From NCBI RefSeq assembly GCF_020400655.1, contig NZ_JAINRC010000014.1:1-64000 (forward strand): a stretch of DNA of 64,000 nt, read 5' to 3'. The translations under genes were made by a program, and so were the position numbers. Positions within the stretch are counted from its first letter, which is position 1. The number at the start of each line of letters is the position of its first letter. The notes beneath the pieces are model-generated. The model did no database searches. It saw only the letters and a program-made list of their open reading frames with translations, and was not told the origin of the DNA. This document shows, piece after piece, positions 17,579 to 27,701 of this stretch. Origin of the DNA: Streptomyces spinosus. Lineage in GTDB: Bacteria; Actinomycetota; Actinomycetes; Streptomycetales; Streptomycetaceae.

Positions 17579-19453
17579 GTGCACCTGCACAGCTTCACCG
17601 TGTGCGGATTCCGATCCCTCAAGGACGTCCGTGACATTCCGGTCAGCACACCGACCATCCTCGCCGGCCAGAACGACGGCGGTAAGAGCGCGGTGCTTGC
17701 CGCGCTGGCGTTCCTTGTGGGCAATGAGCAGTTGACCGAGGACGATCGTACGTACGAGCTCGACGCTTCGGATGGCGTGGACGTCGATGACTCGGCGCCT
17801 CTCCTGCGGTGTTCGACCACATGGGTGGAGGGGCAGTTCACCCTCGACTCTTGGGAGTTGGAAACGTTCGGCTTCCCGACCGAGGAGCTGCGCGTACGGC
17901 GGCGCGCTGTCAACGGTGAGGACCCCGTCCTTGAGTGCTGGGCGCCGCTCGCGGACGACGAACGACTGCGAGACCCTTCCAAGCTGTCCCTCAACGAGGT
18001 GAGAGCCCTCGCCAAGCAGTTGCTTCCTGAGCTGTCGTCCATAAAGCGCGGCGACATCGAGCCAGCCCTATGCAGGTACGGCATGGCTCACGCCTCAATG
18101 TCGGGCTGGGTTCCTGCTCTGAGGGAGATGGAGCGCCGCATGCCCCGGCTGATGCCGTTTGACGGGAAGTCGGCCGATCCCGACGCTGCGGTGAAGACCG
18201 CGCTGATGGGCCGCTACCAGGCCCATATGGCGGACCCCACGCTTGAGGGCCAGTTGCAGTCGATCGAGGCCGGGATCAAGGAGCGACTTCAGGACGACGC
18301 CCGATCTCTGTGCGAGCACATTCAGAGCCGTTGCGACGACCTCACTGATGTTGATGTCGAGCCTGTGGTCTCGTTCACTCACGGTTTCCGGGGTGCGCCG
18401 CTGCGAATCGCCCGTACGAAGGGCGAGACCGTGGGCCTGGATCGTTCCGGCCTAGGTAGCGCACGCCGTATCTCCCTGGCGATCTGGGAGTGGAACAGCC
18501 AGCTGCTCACACGCGAGGAGTTCGCCGACGTCGACTCTTCAGCTGACCCTGAGGCCGCCGAGGATGTCCCGCCTCCGGTACAGACGATCGTGATCTACGA
18601 CGAGCCGGACACGCACCTCGACTACGGGCACCAGCGCAAGATCATGCAGCTCATCCGTGACCAGAGCGCGCTGCCCCATGTGAACGTAATCGTCGCCACC
18701 CACTCCATGAACCTTATCGACGGTGTCGACATCGCCGACGTCGTGCATCTGCGACTGGAGCACGGACGGACGGTGATCGAGCGGCTTGGGGCCGACACCC
18801 ACGACGACATCGACGTGCACTTGGGGCGCATGGCCGCGGCAGTCGGCCTTCGCAACTCTGTTCTGCTGCATGAGCGTTGCTTTCTGGCTGTCGAGGGCGA
18901 CACCGAACAGCGGGTGATCCCCATGCTGTTCCGGCTGTCGGAGGGCCAGTCTCTCCAGTCGGCCGGCATCGCCTTGTGGGCGTGCTTCAACAATGAGGGG
19001 GCCCTGCACCTCGCTCACTATCTGGTCGCGCATGGCCGCTCCGTGATGCTCATGGTGGACGCCGACAGCCGCACCTTGCCCAAGGGGCTCTTCAAGGAAG
19101 CCCGACTCCAGCAGTTCTTCGGCAGTGCTTTCAGTGAGGTCGTCCGTTTCGTGGGCGAGCCGGACGCCTTCAATGAGTTGGAGGAACTGTTCCCGGACGA
19201 CCTGTGGGCCGCGACCGCCAATGAGCTCTGGCCGAAGGACGGCGAGCCGTGGACCACGGACGACTTCACCGCTCAGCGCGGCAAGAAGTTCAGCAAGGAA
19301 GTGCTGAACATGCTCCGCAACGACAGCCCGAACGGGCCCAGCGGCAAACCCGACATGATGTTCGGGCTGGTGAGCACGCTCACCAGCCCTGATCAGGTGC
19401 CCGCACAGCTGCGGGAGATCTTCGGCGAGATCAGAAAGCTGGCCGCAGGGTAA
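17579..19453 (+). CDS. OLD-family ATP-dependent nuclease (ABC-type ATPase plus TOPRIM)
   Basis: A 624-residue protein. Walker A is GQNDGGKS (30-37). The ABC-like signature GLGSARRIS, Walker B TIVIYDEPDTHLD and H-loop VATHS follow. The C-terminal TOPRIM domain has CFLAVEGDTEQRVIP with its glutamate and LMVDAD with the DxD pair. OLD proteins are nucleases found in phage defence (P2 Old, Gabija GajA, retron Ec78-like sets). No UvrD-like helicase or reverse transcriptase is adjacent, which fits stand-alone class 1 OLD rather than Gabija. GTG start at 17579. Its last 23 bp overlap a convergent small gene. Confidence 0.9.
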   Translation: MHLHSFTVCGFRSLKDVRDIPVSTPTILAGQNDGGKSAVLAALAFLVGNEQLTEDDRTYELDASDGVDVDDSAPLLRCSTTWVEGQFTLDSWELETFGFPTEELRVRRRAVNGEDPVLECWAPLADDERLRDPSKLSLNEVRALAKQLLPELSSIKRGDIEPALCRYGMAHASMSGWVPALREMERRMPRLMPFDGKSADPDAAVKTALMGRYQAHMADPTLEGQLQSIEAGIKERLQDDARSLCEHIQSRCDDLTDVDVEPVVSFTHGFRGAPLRIARTKGETVGLDRSGLGSARRISLAIWEWNSQLLTREEFADVDSSADPEAAEDVPPPVQTIVIYDEPDTHLDYGHQRKIMQLIRDQSALPHVNVIVATHSMNLIDGVDIADVVHLRLEHGRTVIERLGADTHDDIDVHLGRMAAAVGLRNSVLLHERCFLAVEGDTEQRVIPMLFRLSEGQSLQSAGIALWACFNNEGALHLAHYLVAHGRSVMLMVDADSRTLPKGLFKEARLQQFFGSAFSEVVRFVGEPDAFNELEELFPDDLWAATANELWPKDGEPWTTDDFTAQRGKKFSKEVLNMLRNDSPNGPSGKPDMMFGLVSTLTSPDQVPAQLREIFGEIRKLAAG

Positions 19454-19940: not shown

Positions 19941-20984
19941 TCAGTTGAAGGCGAGTTCACGGAAGGTGTTGCGAACCTCGGTCAATGGCCCACGATCCCT
20001 TGTGTAGTAGAGCTTGTTGGTCAGGAGAACCGCCCAGCGGTCCTTGGTGGTGGAGATCCACATGCCTGTGCCAGTGAAGCCGTAGTGGACCCAGGCGTCC
20101 TCGTCGGCGGTCGTGCCGGGAGCGGGGTGCCAGAACAGGCCACGAGCAGGCTGGAGCTGGCCCGTCTGGATCGTCAGAGAGTGGGTCACCCACTCGCTCC
20201 CGAAACCAGCCCGGAACTGGGAAGCGGCAGGGGCGAGCATGTACTGGAGGAAGACGGCGAGGTCGTCGAAGACGGTGAAGGCGCCGGCGATGCCGCAGAC
20301 GCCGCCCAAGAGGCGGGCCGAGAAGTCGTGGGCGACCCCCTTGAGGTGGGTGTCGGTGTCCTGGTCTAGTTCGGTGGGCGCGCAGCGCGCCGCGAGGCTG
20401 GCGGGCAAGGGGCCGAAGCGGGTGGAGGTCATGCCCAGTGGGAGCCAGGTGCGGGTGGTGGCCAGTTGGTCCAAGGGCTGGCCGGAGAGGTGTTCGGCGA
20501 GATAGCCCAGGATGAGGGCGGCCCGGTCGGTGTACTCGACTGCCTCACCCGGAGGTCGGTGGAGCTGCTCACGGAGGACGCCTCGCCGGATCTCCTGTGG
20601 GTTGGTGCCGTAAAGGTTCTTCAGCTGGGCTCGCAGTGGGACGCCGGCGGTGTGCGTCAGCAGCTGCCGGGCGGTGACGGATCCGAGTGGGTGTCCGGTG
20701 ACCTCCTGCCAGAAGCTGCCGAGCGGCTGGTCGAGGTCGAGGGTTCCGTCCTCCCACAGGGCGCCGATGGATGACCAGACGGCCAGGATCTTGGTGAGGC
20801 TGGCGGCGTCGAAGACGGTGTCGGTGCGCATGGGCACCTCCGGCTCGTCGGGGTCGAGGACGCCGGTGGTGCCCCGGGCGAGGGTGCCGGTGGCGTCGCC
20901 GAGGGCCCACACGGCGCCCGGGTACACCTTGTCGCGGACTCCCTCGTCGAGCAGGGCTTCGATGCGGTCGCGGTCGTACGTCAT
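19941..20984 (-). CDS. Serine hydrolase of the beta-lactamase/class C penicillin-binding family
   Basis: A 347-residue protein without a signal peptide, so probably cytoplasmic. The catalytic SxxK is S62-L-T-K65, the tyrosine motif is Y151-T-D (YxN-like), and HYGFTGTG near residue 300 corresponds to the KTG/HxG strand. The family includes esterases, amidases and acyl transferases as well as beta-lactamases; a cytoplasmic location argues for esterase or transacylase activity. It is transcribed like the six overlapping genes upstream, 94 bp after the glycosyltransferase. In that gap GTAGTGACGT occurs twice. It may be the last gene of that operon. Confidence 0.85.
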   Translation of the reverse strand: MTYDRDRIEALLDEGVRDKVYPGAVWALGDATGTLARGTTGVLDPDEPEVPMRTDTVFDAASLTKILAVWSSIGALWEDGTLDLDQPLGSFWQEVTGHPLGSVTARQLLTHTAGVPLRAQLKNLYGTNPQEIRRGVLREQLHRPPGEAVEYTDRAALILGYLAEHLSGQPLDQLATTRTWLPLGMTSTRFGPLPASLAARCAPTELDQDTDTHLKGVAHDFSARLLGGVCGIAGAFTVFDDLAVFLQYMLAPAASQFRAGFGSEWVTHSLTIQTGQLQPARGLFWHPAPGTTADEDAWVHYGFTGTGMWISTTKDRWAVLLTNKLYYTRDRGPLTEVRNTFRELAFN

Positions 20985-21078: not shown

Positions 21079-22194
21079 TCAGGTGAGCTGTCGGCCGAGG
21101 TCGGTCAGGGATCGTGCGGTCGCCGAGAGGGGATAGCGTGCCGCGTTGGCATAGCCCGCCTGCTGGAGGGCGGTCATCAGCCCGGGTGTCCTTCGCAGCC
21201 GGTCGAGGTCGCGCGCGAGTGCGGCGGAGTGAGTGAAGTCGGTGGCCATGCCGGAAGCGGCGAGGGCTTGGTTGAGGCCGGGGACGGGCTGGTAGAGGAC
21301 GGGGAGCCCGCATGCTTGGGCTTCCAGTGCGACGAGTCCCATGGCTTCCAGGGTGGTGGACGGCACGGCTAGTACGTCGTGTTCGGTGAAGGCTCTCCAT
21401 AGCTGTGGGCGGCGGAGCCAGCCGAGGTAGCGGACTCGTACGCCGGCTCGTTGCAGCAGTGGCGCCAGTGCGTGGAACTGGGCTTTGGGCGCTGCGACGC
21501 TCAGCTCGACACCGGGAACGGGAGCCAGGCTCTTGATCAGGGCCTCGACACCCTTTTCGGCGGTCAGGCGTCCTGCGTACAGGATCCGCAGGTGGCTGGT
21601 GGACGTGCGTGCCGGCCGGCCGGGCGGGGCGGTAAGCAGGTGGTCGGGGATGCCCCAGGGGATGTGGGTGATCTTGCGGCGTTCGATCTGCGGGGCGAGC
21701 TTGAGGAGGCGGTCGGCCATTGCGTTGGTGGGGACCACGATGGCGTCGGCGGCCCTGGCTGTCTCGCGCAGCACTTGGAGCTGGTCTCGGTGGGTCTCGG
21801 CGAAGAGCAGGTCCGTGCCGTGGACGAGGGCGATCCGGGGGTGTGCGGGTAGGGCGCGGATGAGGGCTGGGGTGGCGCCGAACGCGAGGTGCTGCAAGTG
21901 GAGGACGTCGATCCGTGTGGGATCGAGCGTGGCTGTAAGCGCTCTGCGCAGGGTGGTGACGTAGCGACTGAAGGCTGCTCCTTCCAGGCATTTGCCTGCT
22001 GCGGGGAGCAGGTTGAGGCCGGTGGGTGGACGGGGAGCGTGACCAGGTGGTGCGAGCATGAAGGCGCGGGCCGGGATGAGGGGTTGCTCGCCGGTGTAGA
22101 GGTCGAGGAAGAGCACGACGCTGCCGCCGGGGCTTCCGGCGGGGAGATCCAGGAAGGTGGCGGCCATCGGGCCGGTGGCCGAGGTGGCGTTCAT
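21079..22194 (-). CDS. GT4-type glycosyltransferase
   Basis: A 371-residue GT-B glycosyltransferase. The C-terminal donor-binding half contains LRILYAGRLTAEKGVEALI and EHDVLAVPSTTLEAMGLVAL, with the conserved second-Glu pattern ExxGLxxLE. The N-terminal half has VLHLQHLAFGATPALIRA and VHGTDL. The gene starts 4 bp inside the preceding deaminase-like gene (ATGA overlap), so it is translationally coupled. It probably adds a sugar to the product made by the upstream enzymes. Donor and acceptor cannot be deduced. Confidence 0.88.
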   Translation of the reverse strand: MNATSATGPMAATFLDLPAGSPGGSVVLFLDLYTGEQPLIPARAFMLAPPGHAPRPPTGLNLLPAAGKCLEGAAFSRYVTTLRRALTATLDPTRIDVLHLQHLAFGATPALIRALPAHPRIALVHGTDLLFAETHRDQLQVLRETARAADAIVVPTNAMADRLLKLAPQIERRKITHIPWGIPDHLLTAPPGRPARTSTSHLRILYAGRLTAEKGVEALIKSLAPVPGVELSVAAPKAQFHALAPLLQRAGVRVRYLGWLRRPQLWRAFTEHDVLAVPSTTLEAMGLVALEAQACGLPVLYQPVPGLNQALAASGMATDFTHSAALARDLDRLRRTPGLMTALQQAGYANAARYPLSATARSLTDLGRQLT

Positions 22195-22727
22195 CGCACT
22201 CCTCCGTCGATCTCCTCGTAGAGGCGCGAGATGTCGATGCCCTCCGTGGACGCGTACTTGGCCGGCTGCTGCTGGTAGCTCGCCGGGGCGCCGAAGGTGG
22301 TGAGGAAGACGAGCTTGCCGAAGGTCATGCCTGGATACACGCGCACCGGTCGGACGGCGCGGATCTCCAGCGTCCAGCGGATCGCGTGGCCCTGGTGCCC
22401 AAGCGGAGCCGACACGTGGACCCAGATGCCCAGGGAGCCGGTGGTGCGGTCGCCGTTCAGCATCTGCGCGTACGTCTCCGAACCAGTCCGCTCCAGTGTG
22501 ATGCCCAGGTACAGGAGGCCAGGGCGCAGCACCAGGCCGACGTCGGGGATGGCCTGCTCGGTGAAGGTGGTGGGCATTGCGGCGTCGAGGTCGCCGTCGC
22601 AGACGCGGATGGTGTTGCCGAGGCGCCAGTCGTAGGCGTTGGGGGAGACGCGGCTGGGCTCGTACGGGTCGATGGTGATCTCGCCGGCCTCGACGGCGGC
22701 GGCGATGGCGGGCCCGGTGAGAATCAC
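22191..22727 (-). CDS. dCTP-deaminase-like protein, copy B (keeps the catalytic Glu, lacks RSSxxR)
   Basis: A 178-residue protein of the dCTP deaminase/dUTPase fold. Aligned without gaps to E. coli Dcd from the RSS motif to the catalytic glutamate, E121 (WTLEI) occupies the place of Dcd E138. The phosphate and catalytic stretch R110-S111-S112-xx-R115 is replaced by D93-R-T-T-G-S98. On its own it should lack half of the active site. The GTG at 22727 overlaps the stop of copy A (GTGA) and has AGGTGG upstream. Its 3' end overlaps the glycosyltransferase start. It is probably a hetero-oligomer with copy A (inference). Confidence 0.82.
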   Translation of the reverse strand: MILTGPAIAAAVEAGEITIDPYEPSRVSPNAYDWRLGNTIRVCDGDLDAAMPTTFTEQAIPDVGLVLRPGLLYLGITLERTGSETYAQMLNGDRTTGSLGIWVHVSAPLGHQGHAIRWTLEIRAVRPVRVYPGMTFGKLVFLTTFGAPASYQQQPAKYASTEGIDISRLYEEIDGGVR

Positions 22728-23263
22728 GATGCCACCACCTGGAGCCGGGCGAGGTCTCGCCAGTAGGCGGAGGGCTGCGGTCCTGCGGCGGCCTGGTACT
22801 TGCCCCGGTAGGGTTCGATGGCGCCGGTGGAGAGGAAGAACATGATCTGCCCGATCTTCATGCCGGCGTACACGCGCAGCGGTCGGATCGGGGTGAGCAT
22901 GAGCGTCCACTGGCCGTGGAAGCCGATGTCGCCGATGGGGGCGGTGATCTCGACAAACAGGCCGAGACGTCCGACGGAGGAGCGGCCGAACAGCAGCGGG
23001 ACGAAGGTGTCGGAGCCGACCTCTTCGAGGGTGTGGCCGAGGTAGAGCTCGCCTGGCTGGAGGACGTACCCGTCCGGGCCGATGGTGGTTTCGCGGGTGG
23101 GGTTGGGCCGGTGGGCGTCCAGGACCGCGCTCGTGTACGTGATCAAGGTGGGGCCCAGACGCACGTTGTAGCTGTTGGGGTTGACCTGGTCGGCGGCGAA
23201 GGGGGTGATGCGGAGGCGGCCGTCGTGAGCGGCTGCGGTGATCTCCGGGCCGGTGAGGATCAT
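22724..23263 (-). CDS. dCTP-deaminase-like protein, copy A (keeps RSSxxR, lacks the catalytic Glu)
   Basis: A 179-residue paralogue of the next gene; both begin MILTGP. It retains R94-S-S-V-G-R99, equal to R110-S111-S112-xx-R115 of E. coli Dcd. The residue aligned with catalytic E138 is M122 (WTLML). In Dcd trimers the active sites lie between subunits, so a mixed trimer of copies A and B could rebuild complete sites. The ATG at 23263 shares a base with the stop of the phosphoesterase gene (TAATG). The likely substrate is a cytosine nucleotide; simple structural binding is the alternative. Confidence 0.85.
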   Translation of the reverse strand: MILTGPEITAAAHDGRLRITPFAADQVNPNSYNVRLGPTLITYTSAVLDAHRPNPTRETTIGPDGYVLQPGELYLGHTLEEVGSDTFVPLLFGRSSVGRLGLFVEITAPIGDIGFHGQWTLMLTPIRPLRVYAGMKIGQIMFFLSTGAIEPYRGKYQAAAGPQPSAYWRDLARLQVVAS

Positions 23264-24498
23264 TAACTGCCTCCTTCCGCGGTGTCGGGGGCGGTGAGGA
23301 CGTGCTGGACAGCCTGGTCCAGACGCAGGCCGGCCTCGTGCGTGCGCTCGCCGAGGTAGGTGTCGGCGAGGTAGTCGGTGGTCAGCACGGTGGTCACGGC
23401 ATCCGGCAAGGGATCGGGGGCGGTGACGAGCGGGCCGGTCTGGGTGGTCAGATGTGACAGCCAGCCGGGGAGGTCGCTGCGTGCCAGCTCAGGTACGTGG
23501 GCGTGCACCAGCTGGTTGGCGAACGGCTCGATGTAGAGCAGGTGGCCCTGGGTGAGGGTGTCGCCGAGTGGTACGGCGCGTAGTGCCGTCTCGTTGAGGA
23601 TGACCGTGTCTGCCCCGAGTGCCGTACGCAGGCGGGCGGCGAGGTCCAGGAGCACGTTGCGCCGGTCGAGGGGCTGGTGGCGGTAGGTCGGACTGATGGC
23701 GCCGAGGACGGCGGCCAGCTGCTGTCCGACGTCCTCGATGCGTGAGCGCAGGCCCGCAAGCTCCGCAGGGACGAAGCTCGGGACCTGATCCGGGAAGGAT
23801 GTAGTGCCCGCGCCCCATCCCGCGCCCACGGGCGTGGCGATCGCATAGCCTTCGGCGAGCTCCCGACCCTTGACGACCAGGGTGCCGTCGACTCGGACGG
23901 GCCCGTACTGATCGCTGTGGCAGTGCCCGGCGAAGACCACGTCGAGGAACGGACAAGCCGCCGCGAGTTTCCGGTCCTCGTCGAAGCCGGAGTGGCTGAG
24001 CAGAACCCAGCTGTCCACCTCGTGAACGTGGGCGAGAATCACCTCGCGCAGGGCCTGGAGGGGATCGGTGACGCAGTGGCCGGCTCGTTGGGCGGCCGGG
24101 ATCGAGTGGAAGGCTTGTTGACCGATTACGGCGGTTACGCCGACGCGCCGTCCATCGATGTCGGCGATGTGCAGGCGGCTGAAGAGAGCGTCGCCAGTGT
24201 TGGCATCGACGGCGTTGGCGCAGACAGTGCGCCGGTGAAGGTCGGGTTCGAAGTGGTGGGGCCAGCCGTGGTTGCCAGGGGCCAGCACGTCATACAGCTT
24301 CAGCAGGATCTCCCGCTCGATGGTGCCTCGGGCGAGGCGGTAGTAGCCGCTGCCTTCGAAGAAGTCGCCGCAGTCCACGATGAGCGAGGTCGGGCGCAGC
24401 GCGTGGAGGTGGGTCAGGAAGGGCGCGGCGTTGTCGAAGGAGGAGTGGACGTCCGTCGTGGCGACGATCTGGCGCAGGTTCCGGTCGTCGGTGGTCAT
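23263..24498 (-). CDS. 5'-nucleotidase-like metallophosphoesterase
   Basis: A 411-residue calcineurin-type phosphoesterase of the UshA/5'-nucleotidase group. Metal ligands appear in order as TTDVHSSFDN, VDCGDFFEGS, PGNHGWPHH, LLSHSGFDED and FAGHCHSD. A C-terminal substrate-binding domain contains TLTQGHLLYIEPFANQLV. No signal peptide is present, unlike periplasmic UshA, so it acts in the cytoplasm. The ATG at 24498 overlaps the stop of the MurA-like gene by 4 bp. In this operon it would remove phosphate from a nucleotide intermediate (inference). Confidence 0.88.
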   Translation of the reverse strand: MTTDDRNLRQIVATTDVHSSFDNAAPFLTHLHALRPTSLIVDCGDFFEGSGYYRLARGTIEREILLKLYDVLAPGNHGWPHHFEPDLHRRTVCANAVDANTGDALFSRLHIADIDGRRVGVTAVIGQQAFHSIPAAQRAGHCVTDPLQALREVILAHVHEVDSWVLLSHSGFDEDRKLAAACPFLDVVFAGHCHSDQYGPVRVDGTLVVKGRELAEGYAIATPVGAGWGAGTTSFPDQVPSFVPAELAGLRSRIEDVGQQLAAVLGAISPTYRHQPLDRRNVLLDLAARLRTALGADTVILNETALRAVPLGDTLTQGHLLYIEPFANQLVHAHVPELARSDLPGWLSHLTTQTGPLVTAPDPLPDAVTTVLTTDYLADTYLGERTHEAGLRLDQAVQHVLTAPDTAEGGS

Positions 24499-25814
24499 GG
24501 GGTGACCTCGCAGATGTCGGCGCCCAGGATGCGCAGCTTGCCGGACAGGTCGGCGTGGCCGCGGCGCAGCTGGTTGAGGCCGCCGATGGTGGTGACGCCC
24601 CGGGCCGTGAGGCCGACGACCATGAGGGCGGACCCGGTGCGGATGTCGGTGGCTTCGACGCCCGCGCCCGTCAGCTGCTGGGGCCCTGTCAGGCGGCATT
24701 CGGTGGGGGAGATCTCCTCGATCCGGGCGCCCAGGCGGGTCAGCTGCGGCAGCAGGTTGCCGTGGCGGCCGGGATTGATGGCGTCGGCGAACAGATGCGT
24801 GCCGGGCAGTCCGAGGGCGAGTGCCATGAGCGGTGGTTCGAAGTCGGCGTCGAGGCCCGCAGGGCTCAGAGAGGCGATGGCCCGCAGGGGACGACCAGTG
24901 GGGGCTGTCTCATGCGCGCGGACAGTAAGGCCACCCGGCTCCGCGTCTGCGGGGATGCCGAGCTGATGAAGGGCAGCCACGAACGGGCCTACGTCCTTGC
25001 CCTGCACGCCGTCGATACGGGCAGTACCGCGCGTCGCGGCGATCGCGCAGGCCAGCGTGGCTGCCTCGATCTTGTCTCCGGGCACGGTCCAGGCAGCGGG
25101 GGCAGTCGGCGGCGAAGAGGGCGGCGAGAGAGTCAGTACATGCTCGTTGGCGCGCGTCTCCCAGCCCACCGAACTCAGGGCGTCGAGCATGCTCAGGACT
25201 TCGGGCGAGAGGTTGGGTTGGCCCAGCCGTAAGGGGCGGCCGGTTGTGAGGGCGCGCAGTGTCGCGGCCACGGTCGCACCGCGAGAGCGGAAGGGCAGTG
25301 CGATGGAGACGGTGCCCGTGTGAGAGCTGAGGGCTTCGATGCCGTAACCGGAGCTGTTCTGCCGGCTCCGGTCGCCGAACGCCTCGCACACCTTGAAGTG
25401 CAGCTCCATCCCGCGCGCACCGATCCGGCAGCCACCCGGCCAAGGCAGCCGCGCCCGGCCGTAACGCGCGAGCAGGGCGGGGACGAGGTAGTACGAGGCG
25501 CGGATGTGGGCTGCCTGCGCCAGATCGGGCAGTCGTTGAGATGCCTCCGTCGGCAGGATCACGTAAGTGGTTGGTTCGCCGACGGGCTGCGTGACATGCC
25601 AACCCGCCTGGTGCAGCAGAGTGAGCATGATCTGGACGTCCGTGCTGTCCGGGACGTTGCTCAATCGGCCCGGGCGACCGAGGGCCGCCGCGGCGGCCAG
25701 GAGCGGCAGAGCGGCGTTCTTGGAGCCGTCGACGCTCACGGTGCCGGCGAGCGGCGGCCCGGGGCGTACGGCGATCACCTCGGCGGCCACGCCGGGGGCG
25801 TGGGTGGTCGTCAT
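24495..25814 (-). CDS. MurA-like enolpyruvyl transferase (accessory copy)
   Basis: A 439-residue EPSP/MurA-fold protein. It has the MurA-type DGSKNAALPLL with its lysine, the loop PGGCRIGARGMELH with the catalytic, fosfomycin-binding cysteine, and LDADFEPPL aligning with the FPTDMQAQF aspartate. The rest diverges, and the sequence ends LGADICEV. Island location and operon context argue against it being the housekeeping MurA. Family members also act on nucleotides: UMP enolpyruvyl transferases start nikkomycin/polyoxin synthesis. ATG 25814 has GAGGAG seven bases upstream; the codon before is also ATG. It starts 2 bp after the ATPase gene. Confidence 0.87.
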   Translation of the reverse strand: MTTTHAPGVAAEVIAVRPGPPLAGTVSVDGSKNAALPLLAAAAALGRPGRLSNVPDSTDVQIMLTLLHQAGWHVTQPVGEPTTYVILPTEASQRLPDLAQAAHIRASYYLVPALLARYGRARLPWPGGCRIGARGMELHFKVCEAFGDRSRQNSSGYGIEALSSHTGTVSIALPFRSRGATVAATLRALTTGRPLRLGQPNLSPEVLSMLDALSSVGWETRANEHVLTLSPPSSPPTAPAAWTVPGDKIEAATLACAIAATRGTARIDGVQGKDVGPFVAALHQLGIPADAEPGGLTVRAHETAPTGRPLRAIASLSPAGLDADFEPPLMALALGLPGTHLFADAINPGRHGNLLPQLTRLGARIEEISPTECRLTGPQQLTGAGVEATDIRTGSALMVVGLTARGVTTIGGLNQLRRGHADLSGKLRILGADICEVTP

Positions 25815-25816
25815 CA

Positions 25817-26254
25817 TCAACTCCTCTGGAGGGGCAGGAAACAGGCGACTTCCTGGCTGGGTTTGCTGGTCAGATCGATCTCGGCCCAGCAGCGCTTGCC
25901 GTCCTTCGTCGGTTCGGCGTGGTACCGGTCGGCGAGAGCGGCGACGAGGAACAGACCCCGGCCGCCCTCGCTGTCCGCGTCGGGCAGAGCCGGCTGGGGC
26001 AGGACCGGGCTCGTGTCGCAGACCTCGATCCGCAGGACGGCCTCGTCGAGACAGACCGCGAGCGAGACGGATCCGGTGCCGGCGTACTGGACCGCGTTGG
26101 TGACGAGCTCGCTGACCAGCAGTTCGGCTGTGTGCACCACCTCGGCGCCCAGTCCCGAGCCCCAGCCCGCTATCGCGTCCACGGCCTGGTGCCGGGCCTG
26201 GCTTGCTGCGGCGGGCGTCGCGGGTAGGGAAAGGGCGAGCTGGTGCGCTTCCAT
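25817..26254 (-). CDS. RsbW-like ATP-binding regulatory protein
   Basis: A 145-residue HATPase_c_2 protein. The N box is ELLVSELVTNAVQYAG, followed by VCDTSPVLP (G1-like) and EGGRGLFLVAALADRY (G2). There is no phosphoacceptor histidine domain. Streptomyces has dozens of such orphan proteins, thought to act in partner-switching or as regulators beside XRE proteins. It is the first gene of the coupled minus-strand operon, its TGA overlapping the next ATG. It is divergent from an XRE regulator gene starting at 26430. Confidence 0.88.
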   Translation of the reverse strand: MEAHQLALSLPATPAAASQARHQAVDAIAGWGSGLGAEVVHTAELLVSELVTNAVQYAGTGSVSLAVCLDEAVLRIEVCDTSPVLPQPALPDADSEGGRGLFLVAALADRYHAEPTKDGKRCWAEIDLTSKPSQEVACFLPLQRS

Positions 26255-26331: not shown

Positions 26332-26357
26332 ATGCATGACTTATGCAGGGGCTGCAT
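26332..26357. promoter_or_regulatory. Phased ATGCA half-sites in a divergent promoter region
   Basis: Three ATGCA/TGCAT elements occur at 26332-26337 (ATGCAT), 26343-26347 and 26353-26357, about 10-11 bp apart and therefore on one helix face. They lie between the divergent ATPase operon (from 26254) and the XRE gene (from 26430). The XRE protein is the obvious candidate to bind them; this is inference. Confidence 0.4.
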
Positions 26358-26429
26358 CACGGCCAACTACGGCTGATCTATGCTCGATTGAGCAGGCAGG
26401 ATCAGCGACGGCGGAAGGAGCCGTGGCAG

Positions 26430-27701
26430 ATGGCCGACGCGCATGGGGAGGCGAGACGGATCGGAGACCGGATCCGTCAGGCGCGGGTGTTACAGCGGCG
26501 TTCACAGCACGACGTGGCCGCAGCGCTCGGGTATCACCAGTCCAAGGTGAGCCGTCTGGAGAGTGGTCGCGGCACGGAGGACATCCGCGTATTACGCGCC
26601 ATCGCGCAGGAACTGAACATCCTGCCTCATGAGTTGGGCCTCGCCCCGTCTCAGGACGTCTCCGCCGCCGATCAAGAAGCTGACGACATGCACCGCCGCA
26701 CCTTCCTCGCCGCGAGCATCGCAGCGCTCGCGGCCCCGGCCGGCTCTTCGGCCTCGCACACCGCCCTCGTCCAGGCCCTCCTGCCCGGTCCCGGCCCCGC
26801 GGGCACCGGTGGCCCCCAGGACACGGCCGTCCTGTATGAACGCGTCGGATCAGCACTGAGGCTTTTCCACACCTGCCAATACACGGAGTTGGAGCGCACC
26901 CTCCCGAGCCTGATTGCCGACCTGCGACTGGCGGTCGGTGATGCGACGGACGGGGAAACGGTGTCCCGGCTCCTGGCCACGGCGTACCAGACGACGACGA
27001 GCTTGCTGCTCAAGCAGCACGACCAGGGCAACGCATGGCTCGCCGTCGGCCGGGCGATGGCCGAGGCCGAACGCTCGGGGGATCCGGTGGTCCTCGCCTC
27101 CAGCGTCCGTGTCCAGGCCCACGTGCTGGTCCGTGAGAAGCACGCCACGGAGGCCGTCACCTTGGTCCGGCACACCGCCGACCAGCTCACCGGCTCCTAC
27201 GACCGGCGTTCACCGAAGTACCTTGCCGCCGTGGGACTGCTGCTCCTGCGAGGTGTGACCGCGGCCAGCAGTCGTGGTGATCGCGCGGCCACGAAGGAAT
27301 TCCTCACCGAAGCGAAAGAAGTCTCGCGGTACGTCACTCTCGACCGGCCCGACGCCTGGGCCACCTTCAGCCCGACCAACGTCGCCCTGCACGAGCTGAG
27401 CGCCCTGGTGGCCTTCGGCGACGCCGGCCTCGCCCTTCAGGCGGCCCGGCCCCTCATGCGCCGGCACATCCCGGTCCCCGAACGCCGGGCCGCACTATGG
27501 GTCGAAGCGGCTCGCGCCTACAGCCAGCAGGGCCACCTTGCCGACGGCTACCAAGCCCTGAGGATCGCCGAGACCTGCGCCGCCCAGGACATCCGCCGCC
27601 CCGACGTCCGCAACCTGGTCGCCGATATGGCCGCCCGCGACCGCCGACGTACCCTGCCGGAACTGCACCACTTCAGCCGCCAACTGGGAGTCCCCGCGTG
27701 A
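26430..27701 (+). CDS. XRE-family regulator with TPR-like C-terminal domain
   Basis: A 423-residue protein. The N-terminal helix-turn-helix (about 10-65) contains RRSQHDVAAALGYHQSKVSR. A central MHRRTFLAASIAALAAP resembles the start of a Tat signal but is internal, as is common in this Streptomyces family. The C-terminal two thirds is an alpha-solenoid of TPR-like helices. ATG 26430 has GGAAGGAG nine bases upstream. Its stop overlaps the GTG of the flavoprotein gene (GTGA), so the two form an operon. It probably controls the divergent biosynthesis-like operon. Confidence 0.87.
   Translation: MADAHGEARRIGDRIRQARVLQRRSQHDVAAALGYHQSKVSRLESGRGTEDIRVLRAIAQELNILPHELGLAPSQDVSAADQEADDMHRRTFLAASIAALAAPAGSSASHTALVQALLPGPGPAGTGGPQDTAVLYERVGSALRLFHTCQYTELERTLPSLIADLRLAVGDATDGETVSRLLATAYQTTTSLLLKQHDQGNAWLAVGRAMAEAERSGDPVVLASSVRVQAHVLVREKHATEAVTLVRHTADQLTGSYDRRSPKYLAAVGLLLLRGVTAASSRGDRAATKEFLTEAKEVSRYVTLDRPDAWATFSPTNVALHELSALVAFGDAGLALQAARPLMRRHIPVPERRAALWVEAARAYSQQGHLADGYQALRIAETCAAQDIRRPDVRNLVADMAARDRRRTLPELHHFSRQLGVPA

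What the first reader, a model, noticed from the sequence alone, without database searches (positions are those of the whole stretch)
22191..23263. Tandem dCTP-deaminase-like genes with complementary loss of active-site residues
Seen: both proteins begin MILTGP and align to E. coli Dcd without gaps from the RSS motif to the catalytic glutamate. Copy A keeps R-S-S-x-x-R (94-99) but has Met at the Glu138 position (M122). Copy B keeps that Glu (E121) but has lost R110, S111, S112 and R115 equivalents. Known: Dcd is a trimer with active sites between subunits. Inference: neither homotrimer is active, and an A/B hetero-oligomer could reconstitute sites. The coupled genes would give equal dosage.
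Basis: partly seen in the sequence, partly recalled or inferred. Interest (0 to 1): 0.8.

Follow-up and report, generated by a model that had tools for sequence, protein, structure and literature searches.

The report
Paired deaminase subunits sharing one site
Two neighbouring bacterial genes encode relatives of a nucleotide deaminase that have each lost a different essential part, and because such pairs keep complementary parts in every intact case examined, they very probably work together, inside gene clusters that look as if they make small molecules.

Summary
A (22724-23263) keeps R94-S95-S96-x-x-R99 and the motif-III Asp (D112) but has Met122 at the catalytic Glu138 position. B (22191-22727) keeps that Glu (E121) but has lost RSSxxR and also the Asp (H111). 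The pattern reaches far beyond the window: in 94 distinct loci with two full-length copies (three classes; Actinomycetota and two Rhizobium plasmids) one partner ("alpha") has Asp and no Glu, the other ("beta") Glu and no Asp. All 46 solitary single-domain relatives tabulated keep the whole set. Four loci had one full-length partner only: three with the other interrupted, one at a contig end.

Best explanation: an alpha/beta hetero-oligomer, beta lending its Glu hairpin to alpha's phosphate site, in specialised nucleotide metabolism. Not shown: complex, activity, substrate, product; AlphaFold models were unusable. The nearest precedents are fused (two-domain Dcd, herpesvirus dUTPase). Seven searches of an open-access library found no report of such pairs.

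The parts
22724..23263 (-). Dcd-A (alpha type): RSSVGR 94-99, D112, M122 in place of catalytic Glu, C-terminal GKYQ tail kept
22191..22727 (-). Dcd-B (beta type, GTG start): E121 kept; RSSxxR replaced by DRTTGS (93-98), motif-III Asp replaced by H111, tail Gln lost
23263..24498 (-). metallophosphoesterase (calcineurin-like, weak UshA/SoxB-like matches); 1-nt overlap with Dcd-A, 4-nt overlap with the EPT gene. Family searches used 23263-24492
24495..25817 (-). MurA-like enolpyruvyltransferase (EPT) with a PGGC loop. Family searches used the shorter 24495-25706
21079..22194 (-). GT4-family glycosyltransferase, 4-nt overlap with Dcd-B
19941..20984 (-). beta-lactamase-like serine hydrolase, last gene of the conserved run
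25817..26254 (-). HATPase_c_2 ATP-binding (anti-sigma-like) protein, first gene of the run
26343..27701 (+). divergent XRE-type regulator (below the NsdA family cut-off)

Best explanation
A and B are the two subunits of a hetero-oligomer (most simply a mixed trimer) of the dCTP deaminase/dUTPase superfamily, and need each other. In this superfamily each site lies between chains: one chain gives RSSxxR (phosphates), the next gives the motif-III hairpin that carries Asp128 and Glu138. Alpha supplies RSSxxR, the C-terminal tail and an Asp-only hairpin; beta supplies a Glu-only hairpin. The alpha(RSSxxR)/beta(Glu) interface would be the deaminating site. Beta's hairpin has lost Asp128 and the aromatic residue next to it, so the substrate is probably not dCTP but a cytosine nucleotide with a different sugar (ribo- or modified). 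Any alpha/alpha interface keeps dUTPase-like residues and could hydrolyse the triphosphate or only bind nucleotide. The product then goes to the phosphoesterase and glycosyltransferase of the operon, in a nucleoside-type specialised pathway. Shown: sequences, complementarity, co-occurrence, tree, selection, gene context. Inferred: assembly, activity, substrate, product.
For: Complementarity: in 94 distinct paired loci (95 rows; L134 and L158 are one locus) every alpha has Asp and Met/Gln, every beta Glu and His/Asn/Gln. Solitary single-domain relatives: all 46 tabulated keep (K/R)SSxxR, Asp and Glu (9 loci and 2 PDB chains, 29 loci, 6). Conserved-site table on the tree set: Glu138 solitary 9/9, beta 40/40, alpha 0/40; Asp128 9/9, 0/40, 40/40; tail Gln157 8/9, 0/40, 40/40; RSSxxR lost in 22 of 22 type I/II betas yet their Glu stays. 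Co-occurrence: 50 type I beta hits over 300 bits in 45 of 392 Streptomyces genomes (hand-counted; four carry a stop within the matched stretch); 49 have an alpha-range hit alongside, and the 50th (L156) has an interrupted alpha. Pairing survives reversed gene order (17 of 18 type III loci have beta first) and separation by 7-10 kb (7 of 8 type II loci). Selection: median dN/dS 0.26 (A, 1356 comparisons) and 0.24 (B, 1667). Alpha and beta distances correlate, r 0.94 over 39 pairs, 0 of 2000 permutations as high. Subunit geometry: PMC12524310 and PMC5519681 passages. The genome has its own complete dcd (L001) and a dut read from the ORFs of L004, so the pair is not needed for dTTP synthesis.
Against: No complex, activity or substrate was measured. 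AlphaFold2 models of A and B had mean pLDDT 44 and 55 and were not used; hetero-oligomers could not be modelled. The 94 pairs are not independent: the tree needs only 2 changes for Glu138, 1 for Asp128 and 1 for RSSxxR. In three loci one partner is full-length and the other interrupted (L059, L073, L156), which may be sequencing error or real loss. Type III betas keep RSSxxR and Glu, so there two separate homotrimers could act in sequence. Linked genes have correlated trees without touching. The aromatic residue behind the sugar argument is also missing in 16 of 40 alphas, all of type III. Some clusters also hold a zinc cytidine-deaminase-like protein (L147, annotated; L143 over and L144 under the Pfam cut-off), so deamination may not be the pair's task. 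That motif III and RSSxxR of Dcd itself come from different chains rests on dUTPase literature and on recalled Dcd structures; the one Dcd structure paper that I asked for is not held.
Confidence: 0.75

Rival explanations
1. Two homotrimers in sequence: beta3 deaminates, alpha3 hydrolyses the triphosphate, as a bifunctional enzyme split into two separate enzymes without mixing.
For: Alpha keeps RSSxxR, Asp and the tail, and beta keeps the deaminase Glu; type III betas also keep RSSxxR (18 of 18).
Against: Type I and II betas have lost RSSxxR (22 of 22) while Glu stays invariant, so they seem to have no phosphate site of their own. All 40 betas lost the tail Gln.
Confidence: 0.13
2. Beta is a non-catalytic regulatory or scaffolding subunit of an alpha diphosphatase; its Glu is structural.
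For: Beta lost many canonical positions; alpha alone could hydrolyse nucleotides.
Against: The catalytic Glu is kept in all betas and lost in all alphas (40/40 against 0/40); a scaffold would not need that swap.
Confidence: 0.1
3. The pair has left nucleotide deamination and does new chemistry, for example with a metal site built from the invariant His104, His111, His114 and Glu121 of type I beta.
For: H104, H111, H114 and E121 are each invariant in 69 of 69 type I beta rows.
Against: The three histidines are not shared as a set by type II or III betas; only Glu and a polar residue at the Asp position are.
Confidence: 0.07
4. Decaying duplicate with no function.
For: Truncated or interrupted copies exist in a few genomes (for example L077, L078, L079, L128, L129, L157).
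Against: The full-length type I pairs show dN/dS near 0.25 and near-invariant motifs across several actinobacterial families.
Confidence: 0.02

Closest known systems
dCTP deaminase and bifunctional dCTP deaminase-dUTPase (TIGR02274, PF22769; PDB 4xjc, 2qxx)
   Same: Sequence family, whole-length similarity, RSSxxR in A, Glu in B
   Different: Neither chain has the full residue set; two genes instead of one; the genome has a separate complete dcd; B is under the TIGR02274 cut-off
Two-domain alphaproteobacterial dCTP deaminase (PF06559 kind; Paracoccus L193, 355 aa)
   Same: Duplicated Dcd with split parts: the N domain has KSSTGR, the C domain has lost it and keeps D and E (one sequence read)
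   Different: One fused polypeptide; its C domain keeps Asp and Glu together, and its N domain still has a Glu at that place, whereas in the pairs the two carboxylates are separated
Monomeric herpesvirus dUTPase
   Same: Duplication with motif loss leaving one composite site (PMC12524310 passages)
   Different: Fused, viral, dUTPase only
Engineered asymmetric human dUTPase trimers
   Same: Mixed wild-type and motif-III Asp-to-Asn units in one trimer (PMC4827122 passages)
   Different: Laboratory construct made by covalent linking; the pair here is natural and two-gene
Nucleoside antibiotic clusters with MurA-like enolpyruvyltransferases (nikkomycin/polyoxin; recalled)
   Same: MurA-like EPT and phosphatase in most type I loci
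   Different: No radical SAM gene is listed in the annotated type I locus L141; no product known; no EPT match in the type II and III stretches compared (L110-L125)

Membership tests
dCTP deaminase | Sequence family PF22769 above cut-off | tested here: met
   A 139.4 and B 87.8 bits, cut-off 27
dCTP deaminase | NCBIfam equivalog TIGR02274 cut-off 92.8 bits | tested here: inconclusive
   A 100.1 passes, B 62.1 fails
dCTP deaminase | RSSxxR, motif-III Asp and catalytic Glu in one chain | tested here: not met
   A lacks Glu; B lacks RSSxxR and Asp
dCTP deaminase | Homotrimer; deaminates dCTP | not testable with these tools
   needs protein; AF2 models unusable
dUTPase | Motif-III catalytic Asp without the deaminase Glu | tested here: met
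   A D112 with M122; alphas 40 of 40 have Asp and 0 of 40 have Glu; D83N and D102N nearly abolish dUTPases (PMC5519681, PMC4827122 passages)
[quoted passage not shown]
   by reading: A ends in a Dcd-type GKYQ..GPQ.S tail; [quoted passage not shown]
Split-site fused Dcd (PF06559) or monomeric dUTPase | Complementary loss of motifs between duplicated units | tested here: met
   fused example read
Split-site fused Dcd (PF06559) or monomeric dUTPase | Units fused in one polypeptide | tested here: not met
   two ORFs with a 4-nt overlap; A scores 15 bits on DCD_N, cut-off 21.4
Nucleoside biosynthetic cluster of nikkomycin/polyoxin kind | Nucleotide-directed EPT followed by radical SAM cyclisation (recalled) | tested here: inconclusive
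   EPT with PGGC loop in the window; over the 75 type I loci a loose loop pattern matched 65 times, 62 with Cys; no radical SAM gene listed in L141, whose gene table is incomplete

The most novel reading that the evidence does not exclude
A bifunctional dCTP deaminase-dUTPase was duplicated and its two chemistries were dealt to two subunits of one mixed trimer: an Asp-only hairpin (hydrolysis) and a Glu-only hairpin (deamination), both using alpha's phosphate site. The resulting heteromeric machine acts on a modified cytosine nucleotide and marks a hidden family of nucleoside-type natural-product pathways in Actinomycetota and some Rhizobium plasmids.
Probability: 0.35. Interest if true: 0.87.

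Novelty: new variant of a known kind. Interest (0 to 1): 0.74.

Why it matters
Trimeric members of this superfamily are described as homotrimers, with one fused pseudo-heterotrimer (Drosophila virilis) and fused viral monomers (PMC12524310 passages). A natural two-gene heteromer with reciprocal loss of the two catalytic carboxylates would let the roles of Asp128 and Glu138 be separated by nature, would be a clean test case for complementary subfunctionalisation of an interface active site, and offers a two-gene signature (one Dcd with Asp and no Glu, one with Glu and no Asp) for finding uncharacterised clusters whose genes are annotated only as dCTP deaminase or hypothetical protein.

Tried and rejected
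AlphaFold2 of A and B with alignments A1 and A2 gave mean pLDDT 44.4 and 55.1: not used, and no fold search was run on them. Seven literature searches (listings with abstract starts) showed no paper on paired Dcd genes or on a dCTP deaminase in such a cluster among the rows listed; the library is open-access only and the longer lists were capped, so this is not proof of absence. PMC10733785 had none of the searched terms. The metal-site idea for type I beta was dropped as a general explanation because the histidines are not shared by the other classes. A pseudogene reading was rejected for the full-length type I genes by dN/dS. Whether alpha is one clade could not be settled: in the best tree it is a grade, but one clade is not rejected (AU p 0.233). 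A scan of viral contigs with the beta profile gave one relative, L162, solitary and complete. Of 35 phage records, each with a single match, four were read and all four were complete.

Rows set aside: 20 partial matches were left out of the pair count. Four further full-length rows stood without a full partner: L059 and L156 (beta, with alpha interrupted), L073 (alpha, with beta interrupted) and L126 (alpha at a contig end). The tree used 12 of the 67 fully paired type I loci, plus the window and L141, and left out L126, L127, L129, L156 and L158. The dN/dS comparison used only pairs of equal length with dS between 0.1 and 1.0. The two-domain Paracoccus protein and an Azospirillum Dcd seen were not counted among the 46 solitary relatives.

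Full report
WHAT IS THERE. On the - strand, a tight run of genes reads: ATP-binding protein 25817-26254, MurA-like enolpyruvyltransferase (EPT) 24495-25817, metallophosphoesterase 23263-24498, Dcd-A 22724-23263, Dcd-B 22191-22727, GT4 glycosyltransferase 21079-22194, serine hydrolase 19941-20984. From the first gene to the glycosyltransferase, neighbours overlap by 1 or 4 nt (EPT start). The same genes in the same order, annotated by others, lie on a plasmid of Streptomyces sp. NBC_00161, where B is called 'deoxycytidine triphosphate deaminase' (L141). The window's genome has, besides the pair, its own complete dcd (L001) and a dut, read from the ORFs of L004.

A keeps R94-S95-S96-x-x-R99; Met122 stands at the catalytic Glu. 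B keeps Glu121 and has Asp93-Arg94-Thr95-x-x-Ser98 in place of RSSxxR. In the 75 loci fetched with B as query, A was recovered in 69, B in 68, both in 67. The remaining 8 are contig ends (L057, L058), interrupted or recombined copies (L059, L073, L074) and remnants (L077-L079). A and B overlap by 4 nt in 65 of 67. In the aligned sets, window included, A has R94, S95, S96, R99 and D112 in 70 of 70 and M122 in 69 of 70 (Gln in L064); B has E121, H111 and H114 in 69 of 69.

THE PATTERN IS GENERAL. A search of 392 Streptomyces genomes with the B profile found 50 B hits over 300 bits in 45 genomes (hand-counted; four carry a stop within the matched stretch). 49 have a hit in the alpha score range alongside in the list; the 50th (second copy in G023, L156) has an alpha in two pieces in different frames. 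Most of these alphas were judged by score and place only, not read. The same list showed other Dcd-like pairs that are neither A nor B. I fetched these and others from plasmids. Type II (L110-L116, Embleya L148): alpha and beta starts are 6.9-10.2 kb apart in the seven Streptomyces loci and 1.7 kb apart in Embleya; in the one tested by Pfam (L112) alpha is the N-terminal part of an 838-aa ORF with PPDK_N and PEP-utiliser domains. Type III (L117-L125, L134, L143-L145, L147, L149-L152): 17 of 18 are tandem with beta first, and L117 has alpha first, 4 kb away; the class includes Nonomuraea, Nocardiopsis and two Rhizobium plasmids. On one alignment, 94 distinct loci with two full-length copies (68 type I, 8 type II, 18 type III) each hold one chain with Asp and Met/Gln and one with Glu and His/Asn/Gln. 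No chain in these pairs has both carboxylates. Four loci had only one full-length alpha or beta: L059, L073 and L156, where the partner is interrupted, and L126 at a contig end. The 46 solitary single-domain relatives tabulated (9 loci and 2 PDB chains; 28 bacterial loci and 1 viral contig; E. coli, four phages and Priestia) all keep (K/R)SSxxR, Asp and Glu. Wider sampling agrees: 394 genomes of the class with the A profile gave 5 genomes with pairs (by score) and one solitary complete Dcd (L135 read). 396 genomes of the phylum with a broad alpha profile gave pair-level scores only in G000 and G107; of the other 178 matching genomes, the 28 best loci were fetched and all are complete solitary Dcds. 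The genome samples overlap between calls.

EVOLUTION. A tree of 89 sequences, built without the active-site columns, has beta as one clade (97/89), alpha plus beta together against the solitary ones (93/84, below the tool's star), and alpha as a grade, though one alpha clade is not rejected (AU p 0.233). The tool warned of long branches. The tree needs 2 changes for Glu138, 1 for Asp128 and 1 for RSSxxR. So the many loci reflect few events, held over deep divergence (lowest identity 38% within alpha, 32% within beta). Alpha and beta distances correlate with r 0.94 over 39 pairs, 0 of 2000 permutations as high; linkage alone could contribute to this. Median dN/dS is 0.26 for A and 0.24 for B.

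MECHANISM. [quoted passage not shown] PMC5519681 says the active sites lie at the intermonomer clefts, passages). RSSxxR corresponds to motif II; the Asp and the following strand correspond to motif III: the genome's own dut reads RSG...VDAGYRG with no Glu ten residues on (the motif equation is my reading). Changing that Asp to Asn nearly abolishes dUTPase (PMC5519681, PMC4827122, passages). Alpha therefore looks like a phosphate site with a hydrolase-type hairpin, beta like a deaminase-type hairpin. Type I and II betas have no RSSxxR (22 of 22 lost) and all 40 betas lack the tail Gln, yet their Glu never varies (that the tail covers the site is recalled). The simplest reading is that beta's Glu works against alpha's RSSxxR in a mixed oligomer. 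Beta also lost, in 40 of 40, the aromatic residue of the DPGF segment, which I align with the dUTPase tyrosine that PMC12524310 links to deoxyribose selection; 16 of 40 alphas, all of type III, lack it too. I infer, with that caveat, a sugar other than 2'-deoxyribose in the substrate. Since Asp and Glu belong to one hairpin, no A/B arrangement restores a fully canonical site.

CONTEXT. Most type I loci carry EPT, phosphoesterase, GT4 and serine hydrolase; L065-L069 and L071 have only A, B and GT of the window's genes, beside an argininosuccinate-synthase-like protein and an ATP-grasp-like protein (the latter under the Pfam cut-off; L066) and, from my reading of the ORFs, a ROK-type kinase and an MFS transporter. 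Distant phosphoesterase and GT matches occur in 6 of 9 type III genome loci compared (L119-L121, L123-L125 of L117-L125). Single type III loci have a TauD oxygenase, a PIG-L deacetylase and a ProRS-like ligase, or a small ATPase, a zinc-deaminase-like protein and a nucleotidyltransferase. These look like specialised-metabolite clusters acting on nucleotides and sugars. The product is unknown.

VERDICT. The hetero-oligomer reading is strongly favoured by comparative evidence but rests on no biochemical or structural test. Compared with known enzymes it is a new variant: the nearest split-site relatives (two-domain alphaproteobacterial Dcd, read in one sequence; herpesvirus dUTPase) are single fused chains. 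Seven searches of the open-access library showed no report of such pairs.

Noticed in passing
L112 4752-7265 (similar long open frames in L110, L111, L113-L116): Type II alpha Dcd domain heads an 838-aa ORF with PPDK_N and PEP-utiliser domains (Pfam run on L112 only); the best NCBIfam relatives, all far under cut-off, are prodigiosin ligase and rifamycin phosphotransferase. An unusual architecture for a deaminase-like domain.
   Followed up: partly
L193 1459-2526: A two-domain alphaproteobacterial Dcd shows its own split: KSSTGR only in the N domain, while the C domain keeps D and E and a NYQGQ tail.
   Followed up: partly
L047 9513-10079 (-) and G070:C46:34808-34936: A stretch matching 43 residues of Dcd-B lies in inverted orientation just downstream of Dcd-B, in L047 near the start of the glycosyltransferase gene: perhaps a small inverted duplication.
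   Followed up: no
L142, L146, L153, L162: Solitary, residue-complete Dcds on Paenibacillus and Aneurinibacillus plasmids and a viral contig score well above housekeeping Dcds on the alpha and beta profiles, and may resemble the source of the pairs.
   Followed up: partly
L066 7168-8364 and 5745-7079: Argininosuccinate-synthase-like and ATP-grasp-like genes precede A/B/GT in a locus without EPT, which might mean that an amino acid is attached to or aminates the product.
   Followed up: no
window 17579-19453: AAA ATPase with an OLD-like TOPRIM domain next to the cluster; among the 75 loci (flanks up to 10 kb) matched only in L005 and in part in L019. Possibly a defence gene.
   Followed up: no
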